DNA from: Microscillaceae bacterium
Lineage (GTDB): Bacteria; Bacteroidota; Bacteroidia; Cytophagales; Microscillaceae
Assembly: GCA_025054775.1 (NCBI GenBank)
Contig: JANWZA010000022.1
Span: 62,001 to 126,000, forward strand
Direction of reading: 5' to 3'
DNA: 64,000 nt
Below are positions 3,901-54,949 of this stretch, one piece after another (the first letter of the stretch is position 1; the number at the start of each line of letters is the position of its first letter). A program made the position numbers and the translations under genes. The notes beneath the pieces were generated by a model. That model saw only the letters and a program-made list of their open reading frames with translations, had not been told where the DNA came from and did not search any database.

Positions 3901-4908
3901 TTAGCGTTGTTTGGGTTTTGTAAACAACTCTTCAGGTATAAGCCCTAACTCTTTTAGTTTAGCCATTAAAATGCGGTTTGCCTCTTCTGCTTCTTGACGG
4001 GCAAGGGCCTCTTCTTGAGCTTTACGCTCTGCTTCTTGACGGGCGAGGGCTTCGGCTTCGGCACGTTGAGCCTCTTCTTGAGCTTTACGCTCTGCTTCTT
4101 GACGGGCAAGGGCTTCGGCTTCGGCACGTTGAGCCTCTTCTTGAGCTTTACGCTCTGCTTCTTTGCGTTTTGTCTCTTCTTCAGCTATGCCTTCTGCTCC
4201 TGTCCGCAACACGTTTCCTACTTTATCGCACCAACGTACATACAAGGCCTTGGCTCCCTCAAACAAACCTTCCCACAAGCGTAAGCCTAAAGTTATTTCG
4301 GGCATGTAGTTACTCTCCTCAGACTTGTATGGGACATACTCCTTGCCCTCTAAACGAAATATATTCAAGTCTTCTTTATATAGTTCGTGATACGGGTCGT
4401 GAATAATATAGTATAACACTCCCATATCGGCATATATTTTAAACTTGCTTGTGTTTTCGCCGCCTGTTTTGTTAGATACTATTTCTATCACTAGCTCGGG
4501 GGGCTTTTTCATTCGCCATAGAAAGTAGCACTTGTTCTTTTTGTCCTTTCCCCACTCTTCTGGCATACATACATCAAAACTTAAAAACATGTCAGGTACG
4601 ACGGGCATGGTATTGTAATCATAGTAAATGCCCACGTTAGAACAAGCCAAGAAATCGCGCTCGGTCCAGAGGTTAGCATGGAGCGGGTCAATGTAGAGGC
4701 GTTGCTGTTTTTCGGAGAATAGGTTGTCCACGGGTTTAGGGTCTTCGGTTATGTATTGAGAATAATCAATCAAAGGCACTTCGTAGTAAACGGTGTGAGC
4801 ATAGATAGCGGTTTCGGTGTTGTCATAAACCCATTCAAAGGTTTCGTGGAAGCCGAGTTGTTCTGCTAATGATTGTTCAGGTTTGGTAGATGTATTAGGG
4901 GTAGTCAT
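3901..4908 (-). CDS. Uma2 family endonuclease (DUF820) with a repetitive coiled-coil tail
   Basis: A 335-residue protein. Residues 20-200 are a Uma2/DUF820 restriction-nuclease-like fold. VVPDMFLSFD supplies Asp106, PPELVIEIVSNKT supplies Glu142, and SKFKIYADMGVLYYIIHDP carries the following Lys and the usual C-terminal strand. Residues from about 245 to 315 are a charged coiled coil of 21-residue repeats (EAERKAQEEAQ/RAEAEALARQ), ending in LKELGLIPEELF, a tail often seen on Uma2 proteins. The ATG at 4908 is chosen over a frame that extends 84 codons further, because a strong promoter lies at 4937-4967 and the extension is translated from a dispersed repeat. The cellular role of Uma2 proteins is not settled. 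Confidence 0.82.
   Translation of the reverse strand: MTTPNTSTKPEQSLAEQLGFHETFEWVYDNTETAIYAHTVYYEVPLIDYSQYITEDPKPVDNLFSEKQQRLYIDPLHANLWTERDFLACSNVGIYYDYNTMPVVPDMFLSFDVCMPEEWGKDKKNKCYFLWRMKKPPELVIEIVSNKTGGENTSKFKIYADMGVLYYIIHDPYHELYKEDLNIFRLEGKEYVPYKSEESNYMPEITLGLRLWEGLFEGAKALYVRWCDKVGNVLRTGAEGIAEEETKRKEAERKAQEEAQRAEAEALARQEAERKAQEEAQRAEAEALARQEAERKAQEEALARQEAEEANRILMAKLKELGLIPEELFTKPKQR
3985..4163 (-). repeat. 63-bp in-frame tandem repeat inside the Uma2 gene
   Basis: Nearly identical 63-bp units encode the 21-residue coiled-coil repeat. Two complete copies are followed by a third shortened to 14 residues. The copies differ by very few bases, so expansion and contraction are recent or ongoing. 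Changes of one unit keep the frame open. Confidence 0.8.
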
Positions 4909-4967: not shown

Positions 4968-5015
4968 CTAAAGTACAGTGCTTATTAGGGTATTGTGGTT
5001 TCTTGTTTTTTTGCG

Positions 5016-5160
5016 TTAGGGATTGAAAGGGCAAGCCCTGCAAGGGCTTGGTGCGAAGCGTCAGCGAAGCACCGAAGCGCCAGCGGAGCCCTGCAAAGCC
5101 CGCCCCTTTGCCCTTTGAGCCGTAGCGAAAAGGGCAAAGGGAACGCCCTAATCCCTTCAA
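5016..5160 (+). repeat. GC-rich dispersed repeat, copy 1 (best preserved)
   Basis: A GC-rich island in AT-rich surroundings. It starts TTAGGGATTGAAAGGGCAAG and contains short palindromic pieces such as GCCCTGCAAGGGC, GGTGCGAAGC with GCGAAGCACC, and CCCTTTGCCCTTT with AAAGGGCAAAGGG. It ends near GGGAACGCCCTAATCCCTTC. Degenerate copies sit at 17428-17542 (inverted) and 52775-52897. Open frames across it on both strands look spurious. It has no transposase and resembles a REP- or MITE-like non-coding element. It directly borders the 21-bp array that follows. Confidence 0.7.
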
Positions 5161-5228: not shown

Positions 5229-5585
5229 AGATTTTAGTATTTAATGTTAGCACTTTAATACTTAATATTAATACTTTAATACTTAATGTTAAGGTTTTAT
5301 TAATTTATGTTAAAACTTTAATGATTAATGTTTAATATTTAATACTAAATGCTAATTCTCTAATACTTAATGTTAGTATTTTGGTATTTAATGTTAAATT
5401 TTTAATGATAATTTAATAACATTTATTAGTAAAAACTATGCTTTTAGTAATGAAATATTAGCTATCACTATTAAAAACTATGCTTTTAGTATTAAAAACT
5501 TAACATTTACTATTAAAAATCTAACATTTAATACTAATAACTAAATATTTATCAATAAAAACATACAATTTACTTTTGAAGAGAT
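5229..5585. repeat. AT-rich array of 21-bp repeats with a central strand switch (array A)
   Basis: About 17 degenerate units on an exact 21-bp lattice. On the left half units end in TGTTA at 5249, 5270 (ATTA), 5291, 5312, 5333, 5354, 5375 and 5396, with the core TTTAATACTTAATGTTA. From about 5418 the units are the reverse complement (core AACATTTACTATTAAAAA), still in 21-bp steps at 5418, 5439, 5460, 5481, 5502, 5523 and 5544. It ends in ACATACAATTTACTTTTGAA. All frames are broken by stops. It lies between the divergent promoters of the Uma2 and methyltransferase genes. With copy 1 of the GC-rich repeat it accounts for most of the gene-free stretch 4909-5766; the remaining 5586-5690 shows nothing recognisable. 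Confidence 0.85.
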
Positions 5586-5766: not shown

Positions 5767-6603
5767 ATGAGCAAAAACAAAGTAGATACCAAAGAAATAG
5801 GCTTGGATATCGGGCTAATTTTTTTGGGCTATTTTCTCAAGACGGATTACCTGCATTACGGCTATTGGAAAGATAACCTTACTCCTGATATTGCAAACCT
5901 GAAACAAGCCCAAGAAAATTATACCCAACTCTTATTTGAGTACATTCCTGCGGGGGTAAAGCAGATTTTAGATGTGGGTTGTGGCTCGGGGCGTGTGGCT
6001 TACGAGCTTGTGCAAAGTGGTTATCAAGTAGAGGCAGTCTCCCCTTCCCAACGGCTCTCCGCTCACGCTTACAAATTGCTTGGAAACGACTTTCAAATCT
6101 ATCAAGGCAAATATGAAGAGGTGAAAATTGAAAAACAATACGACTTGGTGCTGTTTAGTGAGAGTTTTCAGTATATTCCCATGGAAATTTCTTTGCAAAA
6201 AAGTTATGACTTGCTACGTCCTAATGGTTATGTATTAATCTGCGACTTTTTTCAGACTGAAGCAGAGGGCAAAAGCCCCCTAGGAGGAGGACACAAATGG
6301 AAAGCCTTTGAAACATTGCTATCTACGCTCCCTTACAAGATAATTCATAACCTTGACATCACCGCCGAAATTGCCCCCACAATGACCGTAGTGAATGATT
6401 TCACCCTGCGCGTTATCCAACCTTCATGGTATATGCTCTTAGAAATACTTGAAACTAAGCTACCGTTTATTGCTAAGATTCTGAAGTGGAAATACAAAAA
6501 GAAATTAGAAAAATTGCATAACAAACACTTCAAAGGAGAGCGAAATGCCGAAAATTTTATGAAATATAAGACCTATCGGCTTCTTGTATTGCAAAAACAA
6601 TAG
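5767..6603 (+). CDS. Class I SAM-dependent methyltransferase
   Basis: A 278-residue cytoplasmic protein with a Rossmann-fold methyltransferase domain. Motif I is ILDVGCGSGRV (67-77), then an acidic strand-2 position region, then YDLVLFSESFQYIP and a DLLRPNGYVLICDFF strand, as in type 11 and sterol-like methyltransferases. The substrate cannot be read from sequence. The C-terminus is basic, rich in Lys and Tyr, and may bring the enzyme to membranes or to an acidic substrate. The ATG at 5767 is preferred over a GTG at 5707 because a -7-like box lies between them. It is followed 48 bp later by meaB, so the two may be cotranscribed, although a functional link is not obvious. Confidence 0.8.
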   Translation: MSKNKVDTKEIGLDIGLIFLGYFLKTDYLHYGYWKDNLTPDIANLKQAQENYTQLLFEYIPAGVKQILDVGCGSGRVAYELVQSGYQVEAVSPSQRLSAHAYKLLGNDFQIYQGKYEEVKIEKQYDLVLFSESFQYIPMEISLQKSYDLLRPNGYVLICDFFQTEAEGKSPLGGGHKWKAFETLLSTLPYKIIHNLDITAEIAPTMTVVNDFTLRVIQPSWYMLLEILETKLPFIAKILKWKYKKKLEKLHNKHFKGERNAENFMKYKTYRLLVLQKQ

Positions 6604-35038: not shown

Positions 35039-35785
35039 ATGAAACTTTTAGCAGGCAAAACAGCCCTTATTACAGGGGCTTCACGGGGTATAGGTAGAGC
35101 TATTGCTCTCCGATTTGCTGAACATGGGGCAAATGTAGCTTTTACTTATCTTTCTAGTGTAGAAAAAGGGCAATCTTTGGAGCAGGAACTCGTGCAGAAA
35201 GGAGTCAAAGCTAGGGGCTATCGCTCAGATGCTTCCGTATTTAGTGAGGCAGAGAATTTGATAAACCAAGTAGTAAACGAGTTTGGTGCTTTGGATATTT
35301 TAGTGAATAATGCAGGTATTACTCAAGATAGTCTACTTTTGCGTATGACCGAAGAGCAGTGGGACAGGGTGATGCAAGTAAACCTCAAATCGGTATTTGC
35401 CCTTACCAAAGCTGCCATTAAGCCCATGATAAAGCAAAAAAATGGCTCTATTATTAACCTCACTTCTGTAGTGGGTATACGAGGCAATGCAGGACAAGCC
35501 AACTACGCCGCCTCCAAAGCAGGAATGATCGGCTTTACAAAATCAGTAGCTCTAGAACTCGGCTCTCGCAACATCCGCGCTAATGCAATCGCTCCTGGAT
35601 TTATCCTTACTGAAATGACAGGAGAACTCCAAGAAAAGCTACGCGAAGAATGGGAGAAGAGTATTCCACTTAAACGTAGCGGGCAAGCCGAAGAAGTAGC
35701 GGATTGTGCCGTATTCCTAGCCTCTGACATGGCAAAGTACATCACAGGGCAGGTAATTCAAGTAGATGGCGGTATGCTCACCTAA
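35039..35785 (+). CDS. fabG: 3-oxoacyl-ACP reductase
   Basis: A 248-residue short-chain dehydrogenase that reduces 3-oxoacyl-ACP with NADPH in fatty acid elongation. Seen are the cofactor motif TGASRGIGRA (14-23), the NNAG segment, the catalytic Ser in INLTSVVGI, and the YAASKAG motif with the catalytic Tyr and Lys. The ending ITGQVIQVDGGM is typical of FabG. Length and all signatures match. It stands alone, not with other fab genes. Some paralogues act on other ketones, but the sequence looks canonical. Confidence 0.93.
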   Translation: MKLLAGKTALITGASRGIGRAIALRFAEHGANVAFTYLSSVEKGQSLEQELVQKGVKARGYRSDASVFSEAENLINQVVNEFGALDILVNNAGITQDSLLLRMTEEQWDRVMQVNLKSVFALTKAAIKPMIKQKNGSIINLTSVVGIRGNAGQANYAASKAGMIGFTKSVALELGSRNIRANAIAPGFILTEMTGELQEKLREEWEKSIPLKRSGQAEEVADCAVFLASDMAKYITGQVIQVDGGMLT

Positions 35786-35961: not shown

Positions 35962-36310
35962 AAATTTTACCATTTAATATTACATTTTTAGTGTATGATA
36001 TTGCAGTTTTAATGCTTAATGTTAAGACTTTAATATTCAATGTTAAAACTTCAGTGTTTAATATTAAGTTTTTAATGTTCAATGTTAAGAATTTAGTGTT
36101 TAATGTTAAGATTTAAGTATTCAATGTTAAGACTTTGTTATTTAATGTTATAATTTTAACATTAAAGGTTAAAATTTTAGTATTATATATTAACCTTTTA
36201 GCGTTAAAAACTAAACATTAAGTATTAAAAACCATGCATTTACTAATAAATAGTAAACATTTACTATTAAATAGCAAACATTGAGTAATAAAAACTTACA
36301 AAATACTTTT
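35962..36310. repeat. AT-rich array of 21-bp repeats with a central strand switch (array B)
   Basis: About 16 units on an exact 21-bp lattice, the same family as array A. Left-half units end in GTTA or ATTA at 36024, 36045, 36066, 36087, 36108, 36129, 36150, 36171 and 36192. From 36193 on, the reverse-complement form appears (for example AACATTTACTATTAAATAG). The right edge AAAACTTACAAAATACTTTT resembles that of array A. A perfect palindrome TGGTAAAATTTTACCA lies at about 35957-35972, at the left edge. The array sits between the converging fabG and nadC genes and, with a short inverted repeat at 35827-35880, explains most of the stretch 35786-36379. Confidence 0.85.
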
Positions 36311-36379: not shown

Positions 36380-37240
36380 CTACCGAATAGCTTTAAGACT
36401 CATATCCAAACTTTTATAGGAATGAGTTAGAGCTCCTATGGATATGAAATCCACCCCTGTTTCGGCAATAGGAACGACGGTTTGCAAATCAATCCCTCCT
36501 GAGGCTTCAGTAGGTATACGTTTGTTGATTAACTTAACGGCTTCTTTGAGGTCAGGTAAAGAGAAATTATCTAACATAATAAAATCAACCCCTCCTGTGG
36601 CTAACACCTGCTCTACCTCGTGCAAATTACGGACTTCTATTTCTATCTTTAGTTTTTTTTGCGTGTATTCGAGGTAATTTTTGGCATTTTCAATGGCTTG
36701 GGTAATTCCTCCTGCATAGTCAATGTGGTTATCTTTGAGCATAATCATATCATACAACCCAACTCTGTGGTTCATACCTCCACCAATGTAAACTGCCCAC
36801 TTTTCCATGAGGCGAAAGTTAGGAGTGGTTTTGCGGGTATCTAATAGTTTGGTGTGCGTGTGAGCGATGGCTTGCACATATTGGTGCGTAAGGGTGGCAA
36901 TTCCGCTCATGCGTTGCATGCAATTTAAGACTAATCTCTCTGCCGTCAAAATAGAACGCGCGCTTCCTGCCACTATAAGAGCCACATCCCCATGCTTGAC
37001 GGCTTGCCCGTCCTGCAATAAAATATTTACTTTAAGCGATTGGTCTAGATGCTTAAAAATTTGCTCTGCTAAGGCAACACCTGCCAAAATGCCTCGGTCT
37101 TTAATGATGAGTTGGGCCTTGCCAACAACTTCAGCAGGGACGCTGGCAAGGGTAGAGTGGTCGCCCTCCCCCACATCTTCGGCAAGGGCTCTTTCTATAA
37201 AAAGATGTATCTTCTCAGCAGTAAGGTAAGGCAAGTTCAT
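36380..37240 (-). CDS. nadC: Nicotinate-nucleotide pyrophosphorylase (carboxylating)
   Basis: A 286-residue enzyme that converts quinolinate and PRPP to nicotinate mononucleotide in NAD synthesis. Typical segments: ALAEDVGEGDHST near the start, RLVLNCMQRMSGIATLT, DTRKTTPNFRLMEKWAVYIGGGMNHRVGLYDMIMLKDNH, IEIEVRNL, and FIMLDN. Length matches QAPRTase. Downstream of the promoter at 37284-37315, which lies within the 3' end of tgt. nadA and nadB are not in the window. Confidence 0.95.
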   Translation of the reverse strand: MNLPYLTAEKIHLFIERALAEDVGEGDHSTLASVPAEVVGKAQLIIKDRGILAGVALAEQIFKHLDQSLKVNILLQDGQAVKHGDVALIVAGSARSILTAERLVLNCMQRMSGIATLTHQYVQAIAHTHTKLLDTRKTTPNFRLMEKWAVYIGGGMNHRVGLYDMIMLKDNHIDYAGGITQAIENAKNYLEYTQKKLKIEIEVRNLHEVEQVLATGGVDFIMLDNFSLPDLKEAVKLINKRIPTEASGGIDLQTVVPIAETGVDFISIGALTHSYKSLDMSLKAIR

Positions 37241-46282: not shown

Positions 46283-46660
46283 TTTTAACAAATAAAAGTG
46301 TTATCTTAAAAATACAAGCACTACCAATAAAATTAAAAAATATAATACTTTTATTTTACATGATACACCTAAACTTAAAAAGTATATTACCTTTAACTTT
46401 TTTAATATACTTTAACTTAAAAAATATACTACTTCAACTTTAACTATTATGCTTTAACTTAAAAAATATACTAACCTAAATTTATGTATTGTATTTTAAC
46501 TTAAAAAATATATATCAAAGAATTTGTAATATACGATTTAATTTTTGAAATATACTAAAAAAAATTAAGTAATATACTTTTACTTATAAAAGTATATTAC
46601 CTAAAAAATTTAATTTACTAATTAAGTTTTTTTGTTTATTATTTAAGTTTTAAGTATAGT
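46283..46660. repeat. AT-rich array of 21-bp repeats, different sequence (array C)
   Basis: About 18 degenerate units on a 21-bp lattice. The best units, TTTAACTTAAAAAATAT, start in phase at 46409, 46451 and 46493, exactly 42 bp apart, with more diverged units at the 21-bp positions between them and on both sides (46367, 46388, 46430, 46472, 46514, 46535 and onwards). Consensus ends in ATATAC. It differs from arrays A and B and has no clear strand switch. It sits between converging mutB and the GH10-like gene and fills the gene-free stretch 46138-46673 together with two terminators. Confidence 0.75.
46557..46598 (-). terminator. Intrinsic terminator for the GH10-like/aspartokinase unit
   Basis: A perfect 11-bp stem, AATATACTTTT (46571-46581) with AAAAGTATATT (46588-46598), loop of 6. 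Read on the minus strand it is followed by a run of eight T (46557-46564). It lies inside array C, about 75 bp after the stop at 46674. Confidence 0.65.
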
Positions 46661-54687: not shown

Positions 54688-54695
54688 TAACTTTG
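54688..54695 (+). promoter_or_regulatory. -7 box of the cobalamin riboswitch transcript
   Basis: TAACTTTG fits TAnnTTTG and ends 6 bp before the first riboswitch stem, which is the right place for a transcription start. No clear TTG upstream. Confidence 0.55.
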
Positions 54696-54700
54696 CAGCG

Positions 54701-54893
54701 CTTATAGGTAGTAGCGAGCTATACACCTATCGCTTGGCTACTTGAAAAGGGAATAAGGTGCAAATCCTTAGCTGTTCCCGCAACTGTGAGTTTCGTAATA
54801 AGGCTTGTATCACAAATCCCCCTTATGCCACTGTCTTGACCAAAGATGGGAAGGCGATACAAGTTGAAACAAGCCAGGAGACCTGCCTATAAG
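54701..54893 (+). ncRNA. Cobalamin (B12) riboswitch
   Basis: A class I-type cobalamin aptamer. Stem P1 is CTTATAGGTAG (54701-54711) with CTGCCTATAAG (54883-54893). The core contains GGGAATAAGGTGCAAATCC, GCTGTTCCCGCAACTGTGA, GCCACTG, GGGAAGGCGATAC, and the B12 box AAGCCAGGAGACCTGCC (54871-54887). It should reduce expression of the btuB-btuG unit when adenosylcobalamin is plentiful. Confidence 0.93.
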
Positions 54894-54900
54894 TGTGTGG

Positions 54901-54949
54901 GTTAGTGGTTGCTTCGGGTAAAAGCACACTAACGGGTTGAATTTCCTTT
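54901..54949 (+). promoter_or_regulatory. Expression-platform hairpin after the riboswitch
   Basis: GTTAGTG (54901-54907) pairs with CACTAAC (54927-54933), extended inside by TGCTT/AAGCA, and is followed by TTTCCTTTTTT. It looks like a transcription terminator controlled by the aptamer, just upstream of the btuB ATG at 54962. Confidence 0.6.

What the first reader, a model, noticed from the sequence alone, without database searches (positions are those of the whole stretch)
5229..5585. 21-bp AT-rich array that reverses strand at its centre without losing phase
About 17 units lie on an exact 21-bp lattice (unit ends at 5249, 5270, 5291, 5312, 5333, 5354, 5375, 5396). From about 5418 the repeat appears as its reverse complement, still every 21 bp. 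21 bp is two turns of B-DNA, so every unit presents the same face. Tandem duplication alone would not explain a kept phase across an inversion; a protein-DNA lattice, a curved-DNA element, or a long hairpin are possible. Functional meaning is inferred.
Basis: partly seen in the sequence, partly recalled or inferred. Interest (0 to 1): 0.8.

Follow-up and report, generated by a model that had tools for sequence, protein, structure and literature searches.

The report
Two-armed 21-bp intergenic repeat lattices
This bacterium carries at least 18 scattered, degenerate DNA repeat arrays between genes, each built on a nearly unbroken 21-base grid whose units all point toward the array's centre, which looks like a lattice held in phase with the DNA helix, although what it does has not been shown.

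Summary
Window 5229-5585 has a lag-21 autocorrelation of 0.655 against 0.366 +/- 0.029 for shuffles, and the repeat turns into its reverse complement near 5409 without leaving the 21-bp grid. It is one of at least 18 such arrays in this 3.0-Mb Bacteroidota genome; a second is at window 36008-36301. Sixteen fitted arrays each show exactly one switch, always convergent and never divergent, with 2 indels against 1400 departures from consensus in 5565 bp. Two arrays not used in the fit show the same.

The phase survives the inversion because the unit is a near-palindromic 12-bp core (TTTAATATTAAA) plus a 9-bp polar spacer (TGTTWAGTT); only the spacer flips. Units resemble independent draws from one consensus rather than recent copies. 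Hairpin covariation is absent in most arrays, curvature depends on the model, and coding, terminator and promoter readings fit poorly. The genome also has a 42-bp class. A related genus has 21-bp arrays of different sequence, one in the orthologous efflux-operon gap.

Best reading: a heptamer-derived repeat family held in register, probably as a protein-bound architectural lattice. The anatomy is shown; the function is inferred. Novelty: a new variant of bacterial intergenic satellite DNA.

The parts
5233..5408 (+). Array 1 (C23a), left arm: eight 21-bp units, consensus TTTAATAYTWAATGTTWAGTT pointing right (inward)
   Evidence: Leave-one-out row scores +8 to +17 in favour of the left-arm model; HMM switch at 5409, no indel; lag-21 z = 10
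5409..5568 (-). Array 1, right arm: eight units of the same 21-mer as its reverse complement (plus strand TTTACTATTAAAAACTAAACA), same lattice phase
   Evidence: Row scores -8 to -17; TRF 5422-5572
36008..36194 (+). Array 2 (C23b), left arm, about nine units of the same family
   Evidence: TRF, leave-one-out p = 0.002, HMM switch at 36195 without indel
36195..36301 (-). Array 2, right arm, about five units as reverse complement in the same phase
46314..46607 (.). AT-rich 42-bp lattice of a different motif (autocorrelation at lags 42, 84 and 126 only; no lag-7 or lag-21 signal; no strand switch recognised)
3901..4908 (-). Left neighbour of array 1: Uma2-family protein gene (starts at 4908, transcribed away from the array)
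   Evidence: Pfam PF05685, E = 3.7e-13
5767..6603 (+). Right neighbour of array 1: SAM-dependent methyltransferase gene (divergent gap)
   Evidence: Pfam Methyltransf_23, E = 3.6e-12
35039..35785 (+). Left neighbour of array 2: FabG 3-oxoacyl-ACP reductase (convergent gap)
   Evidence: TIGR01830, 344 bits against a cut-off of 297.75
36380..37240 (-). Right neighbour of array 2: NadC
   Evidence: TIGR00078, 320.7 bits against a cut-off of 198.4

Best explanation
Shown: array 1 is one member of a dispersed family of intergenic arrays. Each is a row of about 12-23 degenerate 21-bp units made of a near-palindromic 12-bp core (TTTAATATTAAA) and a 9-bp polar spacer (TGTTWAGTT). The spacers point inward from both ends and reverse once near the middle, and because the core is its own reverse complement the 21-bp register is kept through the switch. 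Inferred origin: the unit is three heptads long (21 = 3 x 7) and grew out of the TTAAATG-like heptamer repeats that litter intergenic DNA of this family. Inferred function: the register (two helical turns) has been held by selection because each core is a site for a symmetric, probably dimeric DNA-binding protein, so that the array is a one-faced lattice of about 12-23 bound dimers (a nucleoid-architecture, insulator or tethering element). The inward polarity would orient or limit the filament from both ends. No binding protein has been identified.
For: 18 arrays, all between annotated-size genes (two more). Single left-to-right switch in 16/16 fitted arrays, 2 indels against 1400 departures from consensus in 5565 bp; two arrays outside the fit agree with p = 0.0006 and 0.0002. 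Between-array unit identity (0.651 left, 0.602 right) equals that of independent draws from the column profile (0.658, 0.607), and identity falls only from 0.68 to 0.64 with distance along the arm, so units look individually held to a consensus. Both arms share one core register. Arrays are of limited length, 252-483 bp. A second sequence class has a 42-bp register and no heptad signal. In a related genus (G008) three loci carry 21-bp arrays with a recognisably similar core (TTTYAACGCTAAC), one in the orthologous MFP-RND gap, with spacer sequences that reverse in phase. In G008 heptamer repeats do lose register (7/8-bp mixtures), unlike the 21-bp lattices.
Against: No protein, no binding data, no expression data. 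The sequence family was found in no other genome searched by pattern (57 relatives, 395 of the class). Position relative to genes is unselective (divergent, convergent, tandem gaps; housekeeping neighbours). A weak inward G-over-C skew is present in ordinary gaps of this genome too (135 against 80 gaps, p = 0.0002) and strongly in G008 (68 against 23), which could point to a mutational rather than a selective cause of the polarity. The expected neutral indel rate was not measured in this lineage, and units copied by duplication share substitutions, so 1400 is not a count of independent events.
Confidence: 0.42

Rival explanations
1. Selectively neutral satellite: heptamer slippage, inverted seed and later duplications made the arrays; the polarity and the 21-bp register are by-products of how such repeats arise and nothing binds them specifically.
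For: Heptamer repeats abound in relatives and are known in Bacteroidota intergenic regions (PMC4679880). Lag-7 signal persists in the 21-bp arrays. Short heptad palindromes in another family of the class are also only convergent (19 convergent sites, counting overlapping matches, against 0 divergent). Inward skew occurs in gaps without arrays. Arrays sit in random gene contexts.
Against: Near absence of indels despite about 25% departure from consensus, while G008 heptamer runs mix 7 and 8 bp. Star-like unit relations rather than nearest-neighbour similarity. 42-bp class without heptad signal. Only 21n periods among the noncoding periodicities of a 780-kb sample, though these are just two motif classes.
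Confidence: 0.35
2. Long hairpin or cruciform: the arms pair in RNA or single-stranded DNA.
For: Folding energies are below dinucleotide shuffles in most arrays (z from -1.9 to -9.1); C3 and to a lesser degree C7 and C34a show extra mirror complementarity.
Against: Pairing is no better than after permuting unit order in nearly all arrays (Stouffer z 1.3, mostly from C3). Left arms match right arms of other arrays slightly better than their own (0.622 against 0.599). Much of the folding stability follows from unit self-complementarity. Arrays lie in all transcription contexts.
Confidence: 0.08
3. Intrinsically curved DNA: A/T tracts repeated every two turns give a planar bend kept across the inversion.
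For: AAA/TTT trinucleotides have strong power at 10.5 bp. Under the Bolshoy wedge table end-to-end distance is below shuffles in 15 of 16 arrays, and on average the native centre phase gives close to the most compact path.
Against: Under the De Santis-type table there is no excess curvature and native phase is not favoured; column-permuted lattices curve almost as much (mean z -0.86 and 0.03). Both tables were written from memory. Overall sequence periodicity is dominated by 7 bp, not 10.5 bp.
Confidence: 0.12
4. Mobile or recombination element (integron-like or transposon-derived) whose copies spread to intergenic sites.
For: Many dispersed copies of one architecture; orthologous gaps lacking arrays are short in other orders (33 and 97 bp in G017 and G018).
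Against: No shared termini or target duplications were seen; flank comparison gives only scattered short hits, one of them a different dispersed repeat. No match in viral contigs.
Confidence: 0.05

Closest known systems
Heptamer simple-sequence repeats of intergenic DNA (e.g. TAACTGA arrays in Beggiatoaceae, Cyanobacteria and some Bacteroidetes, PMC4679880)
   Same: Intergenic, AT-rich, period related to 7 bp, dispersed copies, occurs in Bacteroidetes; intergenic regions longer than in relatives
   Different: Those are near-perfect 7-bp direct repeats, largely in one orientation to a start codon; here the unit is a degenerate 21-mer with two convergent arms and a fixed register
Bacterial satellites (non-coding tandem-repeat families, PMC6749651)
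   Same: Families of tandem arrays scattered in one genome, some derived from heptamers
   Different: The strand switch at constant phase and the invariant convergent polarity are not described in the passages read
REP/BIME elements (PMC2817692, abstract)
   Same: Regularly spaced extragenic palindromic units in alternating orientations; BIMEs are binding sites of several proteins
   Different: REPs are short hairpins with a GTAG-type end and RAYT transposases; here orientation changes once per array, units are AT-rich and have no such tag
Iteron or parS-type protein-binding arrays (own knowledge)
   Same: Repeated sites at helical multiples, some near 21-22 bp, bound by a dedicated protein
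   Different: Iterons sit at one replicon locus next to the gene of their binder; here at least 18 arrays at unrelated housekeeping loci and no associated binder

Membership tests
Heptamer SSR arrays | Exact or near-exact 7-bp tandem repetition | tested here: not met
   Lag 7 identity 0.49 against 0.655 at lag 21; descent from heptamers is possible but the array is not a 7-bp repeat now
Heptamer SSR arrays | Intergenic location | tested here: met
   All arrays lie between long ORFs; one degenerate copy runs into the N-terminus of an MFP ORF
Bacterial satellite (non-coding tandem array family) | Several arrays of related tandem units in one genome | tested here: met
   18 arrays
REP/BIME | Short stable hairpin unit with conserved GTAG or CGTC end tag and high copy number | tested here: not met
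   Column counts show no such tag in the unit; about 18 arrays only
RNA hairpin or structured RNA | Compensatory pairing between arms; match to a known RNA family | tested here: not met
   No mirror pairing beyond unit permutation in 15 of 16 arrays; no Rfam match at arrays
Coding repeat (21 bp = 7 codons) | Open frame through the array with synonymous-biased variation | tested here: not met
   No ORF of 80 aa inside 5229-5585; open frames occur in some arrays but the variable columns are not the third codon positions of the open frame (column counts)
Iteron/parS-type binding array | Cognate binding protein demonstrated or encoded alongside | not testable with these tools
   Neighbouring genes are housekeeping; binding needs an experiment
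Phased A-tract curved DNA | Curvature above composition- and period-matched controls | tested here: inconclusive
   Result depends on the wedge table

The most novel reading that the evidence does not exclude
A chromosome-wide class of architectural elements: palindromic cores every two helical turns, with polar linkers that always converge on one centre, bound by a dedicated dimeric protein that forms a filament of fixed register; sequence turns over between genera while period, polarity and even some loci persist.
Probability: 0.25. Interest if true: 0.85.

Novelty: new variant of a known kind. Interest (0 to 1): 0.62.

Why it matters
Degenerate repeats that lose sequence identity but not register are a sign that spacing itself is what is kept. 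If a protein reads this lattice, it would be a nucleoid element in Bacteroidota, where chromosome architecture is little known, with a built-in two-armed polarity. If it is neutral, it shows that intergenic satellites in this lineage arise with a fixed strand polarity, which is a mutational rule worth explaining.

Tried and rejected
Coding repeat (no ORF inside array 1; variable positions are not wobble positions). Terminators, promoters or 3'-UTR elements: arrays occur in convergent, divergent and tandem gaps alike, with the same polarity, and one sits inside an MFP-RND operon. Transcription-coupled strand asymmetry: rejected for the same reason. Long hairpin: weakened by the permutation and arm-pairing tests. 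Mobile element: no shared flanks or ends, none in viral contigs. Curvature: inconclusive. Known RNA family: no Rfam match at any array in the window; the only hit is a cobalamin riboswitch elsewhere. Organism name not established: no close relative came up in the named collection.

Full report
Observation. Array 1 lies between a Uma2-family gene (start 4908, minus strand) and a methyltransferase gene (start 5767, plus strand), so in a divergent gap. Lag-21 identity is 0.655 against 0.366 +/- 0.029 for shuffles. On the grid starting at 5233 the rows read TTTAGTATTTAATGTTAGCAC, TTTAATACTTAATATTAATAC and so on to about 5400, then rows of the type TTTTAGTATTAAAAACTTAACATTTACTATTAAA in which the same 21-mer is on the other strand. 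TRF independently reports period 21 on both sides.

Family. A 30-base pattern search of the whole genome found 58 plus-strand and 13 minus-strand matches and none to the reversed control. They fall into 16 places, which were fetched with flanks and laid on the 21-bp grid. A 63-position sequence profile then found two further arrays, on contigs C15 and C59, and a degenerate one upstream of the MFP gene on C32.

Polarity and register. Left- and right-arm column models were iterated and each array was scored with models trained on the others. Fourteen of 16 arrays switch once from left type to right type with p of at most 0.01; C6 is ambiguous (p = 0.1) and C25 fails only because of a 1-bp slip in its left arm. 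A cyclic profile HMM that is free to start in either type and to switch either way gives one left-to-right switch in 16 of 16, no right-to-left switch, and 2 indels (C25, and one at the edge of C58) against 1400 departures from consensus in 5565 bp. The HMM models were trained on these arrays, so the two later arrays are the independent test: C15 p = 0.0006, C59 p = 0.0002, both convergent and in phase.

Why the phase is kept. The left consensus is TTTAATAYTWAATGTTWAGTT; the right arm, reverse complemented and rotated by 12, is TTTAATATTAAATGTTWAGTT (column counts). Positions 1-12 (TTTAATATTAAA) are a palindrome and keep the same register in both arms; positions 13-21 (TGTTWAGTT) flip to AACTWAACA. 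An inversion about the dyad of any core therefore leaves the lattice intact. In the related genome G008 the same thing is seen one unit at a time: TTTCAACGCTAACATCACCGA alternates with TTTCAACGCTAACATTGGTGT on an unbroken 21-bp grid.

History of the units. Mean identity within arms is 0.704 (left) and 0.634 (right), between arrays 0.651 and 0.602; independent draws from the column profile would give 0.658 and 0.607. Identity falls only from 0.684 for neighbours to 0.637 at eight units' distance. So most of the similarity is a shared consensus, with a small excess from local copying. This is what individually constrained sites would show; saturated old duplications would also give star-like relations, but should have collected indels.

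Hairpin and curvature. Arrays fold more stably than dinucleotide shuffles, but mirrored units do not pair better than permuted ones except in C3, and left arms do not prefer their own right arm. Curvature is predicted by the Bolshoy table, where the native centre phase is on average close to the most compact one, but not by a De Santis-type table; both were entered from memory, and lattices with permuted columns curve almost as much. I treat curvature as unresolved.

Surroundings. Array contexts are divergent, convergent and tandem, and neighbours are ordinary genes (PNPase, LysS, LigA, PurL, CoaD-like, MurE-like ligase, ClpB, FabG, NadC and others). The polarity is the same in all contexts, so it does not follow transcription. 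On contig C32 arrays occupy the gap between the MFP and the RND pump genes, the gap behind the pump, and, in degenerate form, the start of the MFP ORF.

Other lattices. In an unbiased sample of about 0.78 Mb (lags 8-130) every strong noncoding periodicity was 21, 42 or 126 bp. The 42- and 126-bp hits belong to array 2 and to a second motif class with a GTAATA...TATTAC unit (C5:46938, C5:50391, window 46314-46607), which has no lag-7 signal. That makes two independent motif classes with a period that is a multiple of 21, suggestive but few. Samples of other genomes gave heterogeneous periods.

Relatives. The exact family was not found in 57 relatives or 395 genomes of the class; hits there are short heptamer runs. 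In three genomes of one genus in another family, short heptad palindromes are always convergent (9, 8 and 2 sites, overlapping matches counted separately) and never divergent. In G008, same family but another genus, 21-bp arrays occur at three places: two in MFP-RND gaps, one of them next to the best match of the C32 MFP, and one by a DNA polymerase III alpha gene (dnaE identified by eye from the sequence). Two of three arrays in MFP-RND gaps is curious, but the loci may be related by duplication.

A general skew. In gaps of 150-1500 bp without arrays, G minus C is higher in the left half than the right in 135 against 80 gaps of this genome (p = 0.0002) and in 68 against 23 gaps of G008 (arrays included; p = 2.5e-6), but not in two control sets (210/220 and 73/63). 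Gene calls were crude. So the inward polarity may be a wider property of intergenic DNA in these two genera. This is the strongest point for a mutational origin of the polarity.

Weighing. Anatomy (family, register, convergent polarity, palindromic core) is established by computation. That register is under selection is likely but rests on an indel deficit without a measured neutral rate. That a protein binds is inference. I put the protein-lattice reading at about 0.42 and the neutral satellite at 0.35.

Noticed in passing
window 46314-46607; L208:6927-7304; L208:10255-10640: A second class of AT-rich intergenic lattice with a 42-bp period (GTAATA...TATTAC unit), without heptad signal and without a recognised strand switch.
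   Followed up: partly
L265:7253-7504, L267:4117-4305, L266:6574-6783 (genome G008): 21-bp arrays of a different unit (TTTYAACGCTAACATYACCRA) in a related genus, two of three between a membrane-fusion-protein gene and its RND pump gene, one of these in the gap orthologous to array C32b.
   Followed up: partly
intergenic gaps of G000 and G008: G over C is higher in the left half than in the right half of gaps whatever the gene orientation, also in G000 gaps without arrays; absent in control genomes.
   Followed up: partly
G332, G135, G284 (another family of the class): Short intergenic heptad palindromes TTAGTNN...NNACTAA occur only in convergent orientation; the divergent pattern has no match.
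   Followed up: no
L127:9380-9521: A degenerate array runs into the MFP ORF and is readable as a seven-residue repeat (FNLKYLVFNTKRLLSNVQWLLANTTCLL) at its N-terminus; the true start is probably further in.
   Followed up: no
window ~5015-5145 and L123 ~4270-4390: A GC-richer dispersed repeat shared by the flanks of arrays C23a and C6, in opposite orientation.
   Followed up: no
window 54689-54904: Cobalamin riboswitch (Rfam RF00174, 108 bits).
   Followed up: no
window 4007-4163: Nearly perfect 63-bp tandem repeat (2.5 copies, 98%) at the 3' part of the Uma2-family ORF, probably a coding repeat.
   Followed up: no
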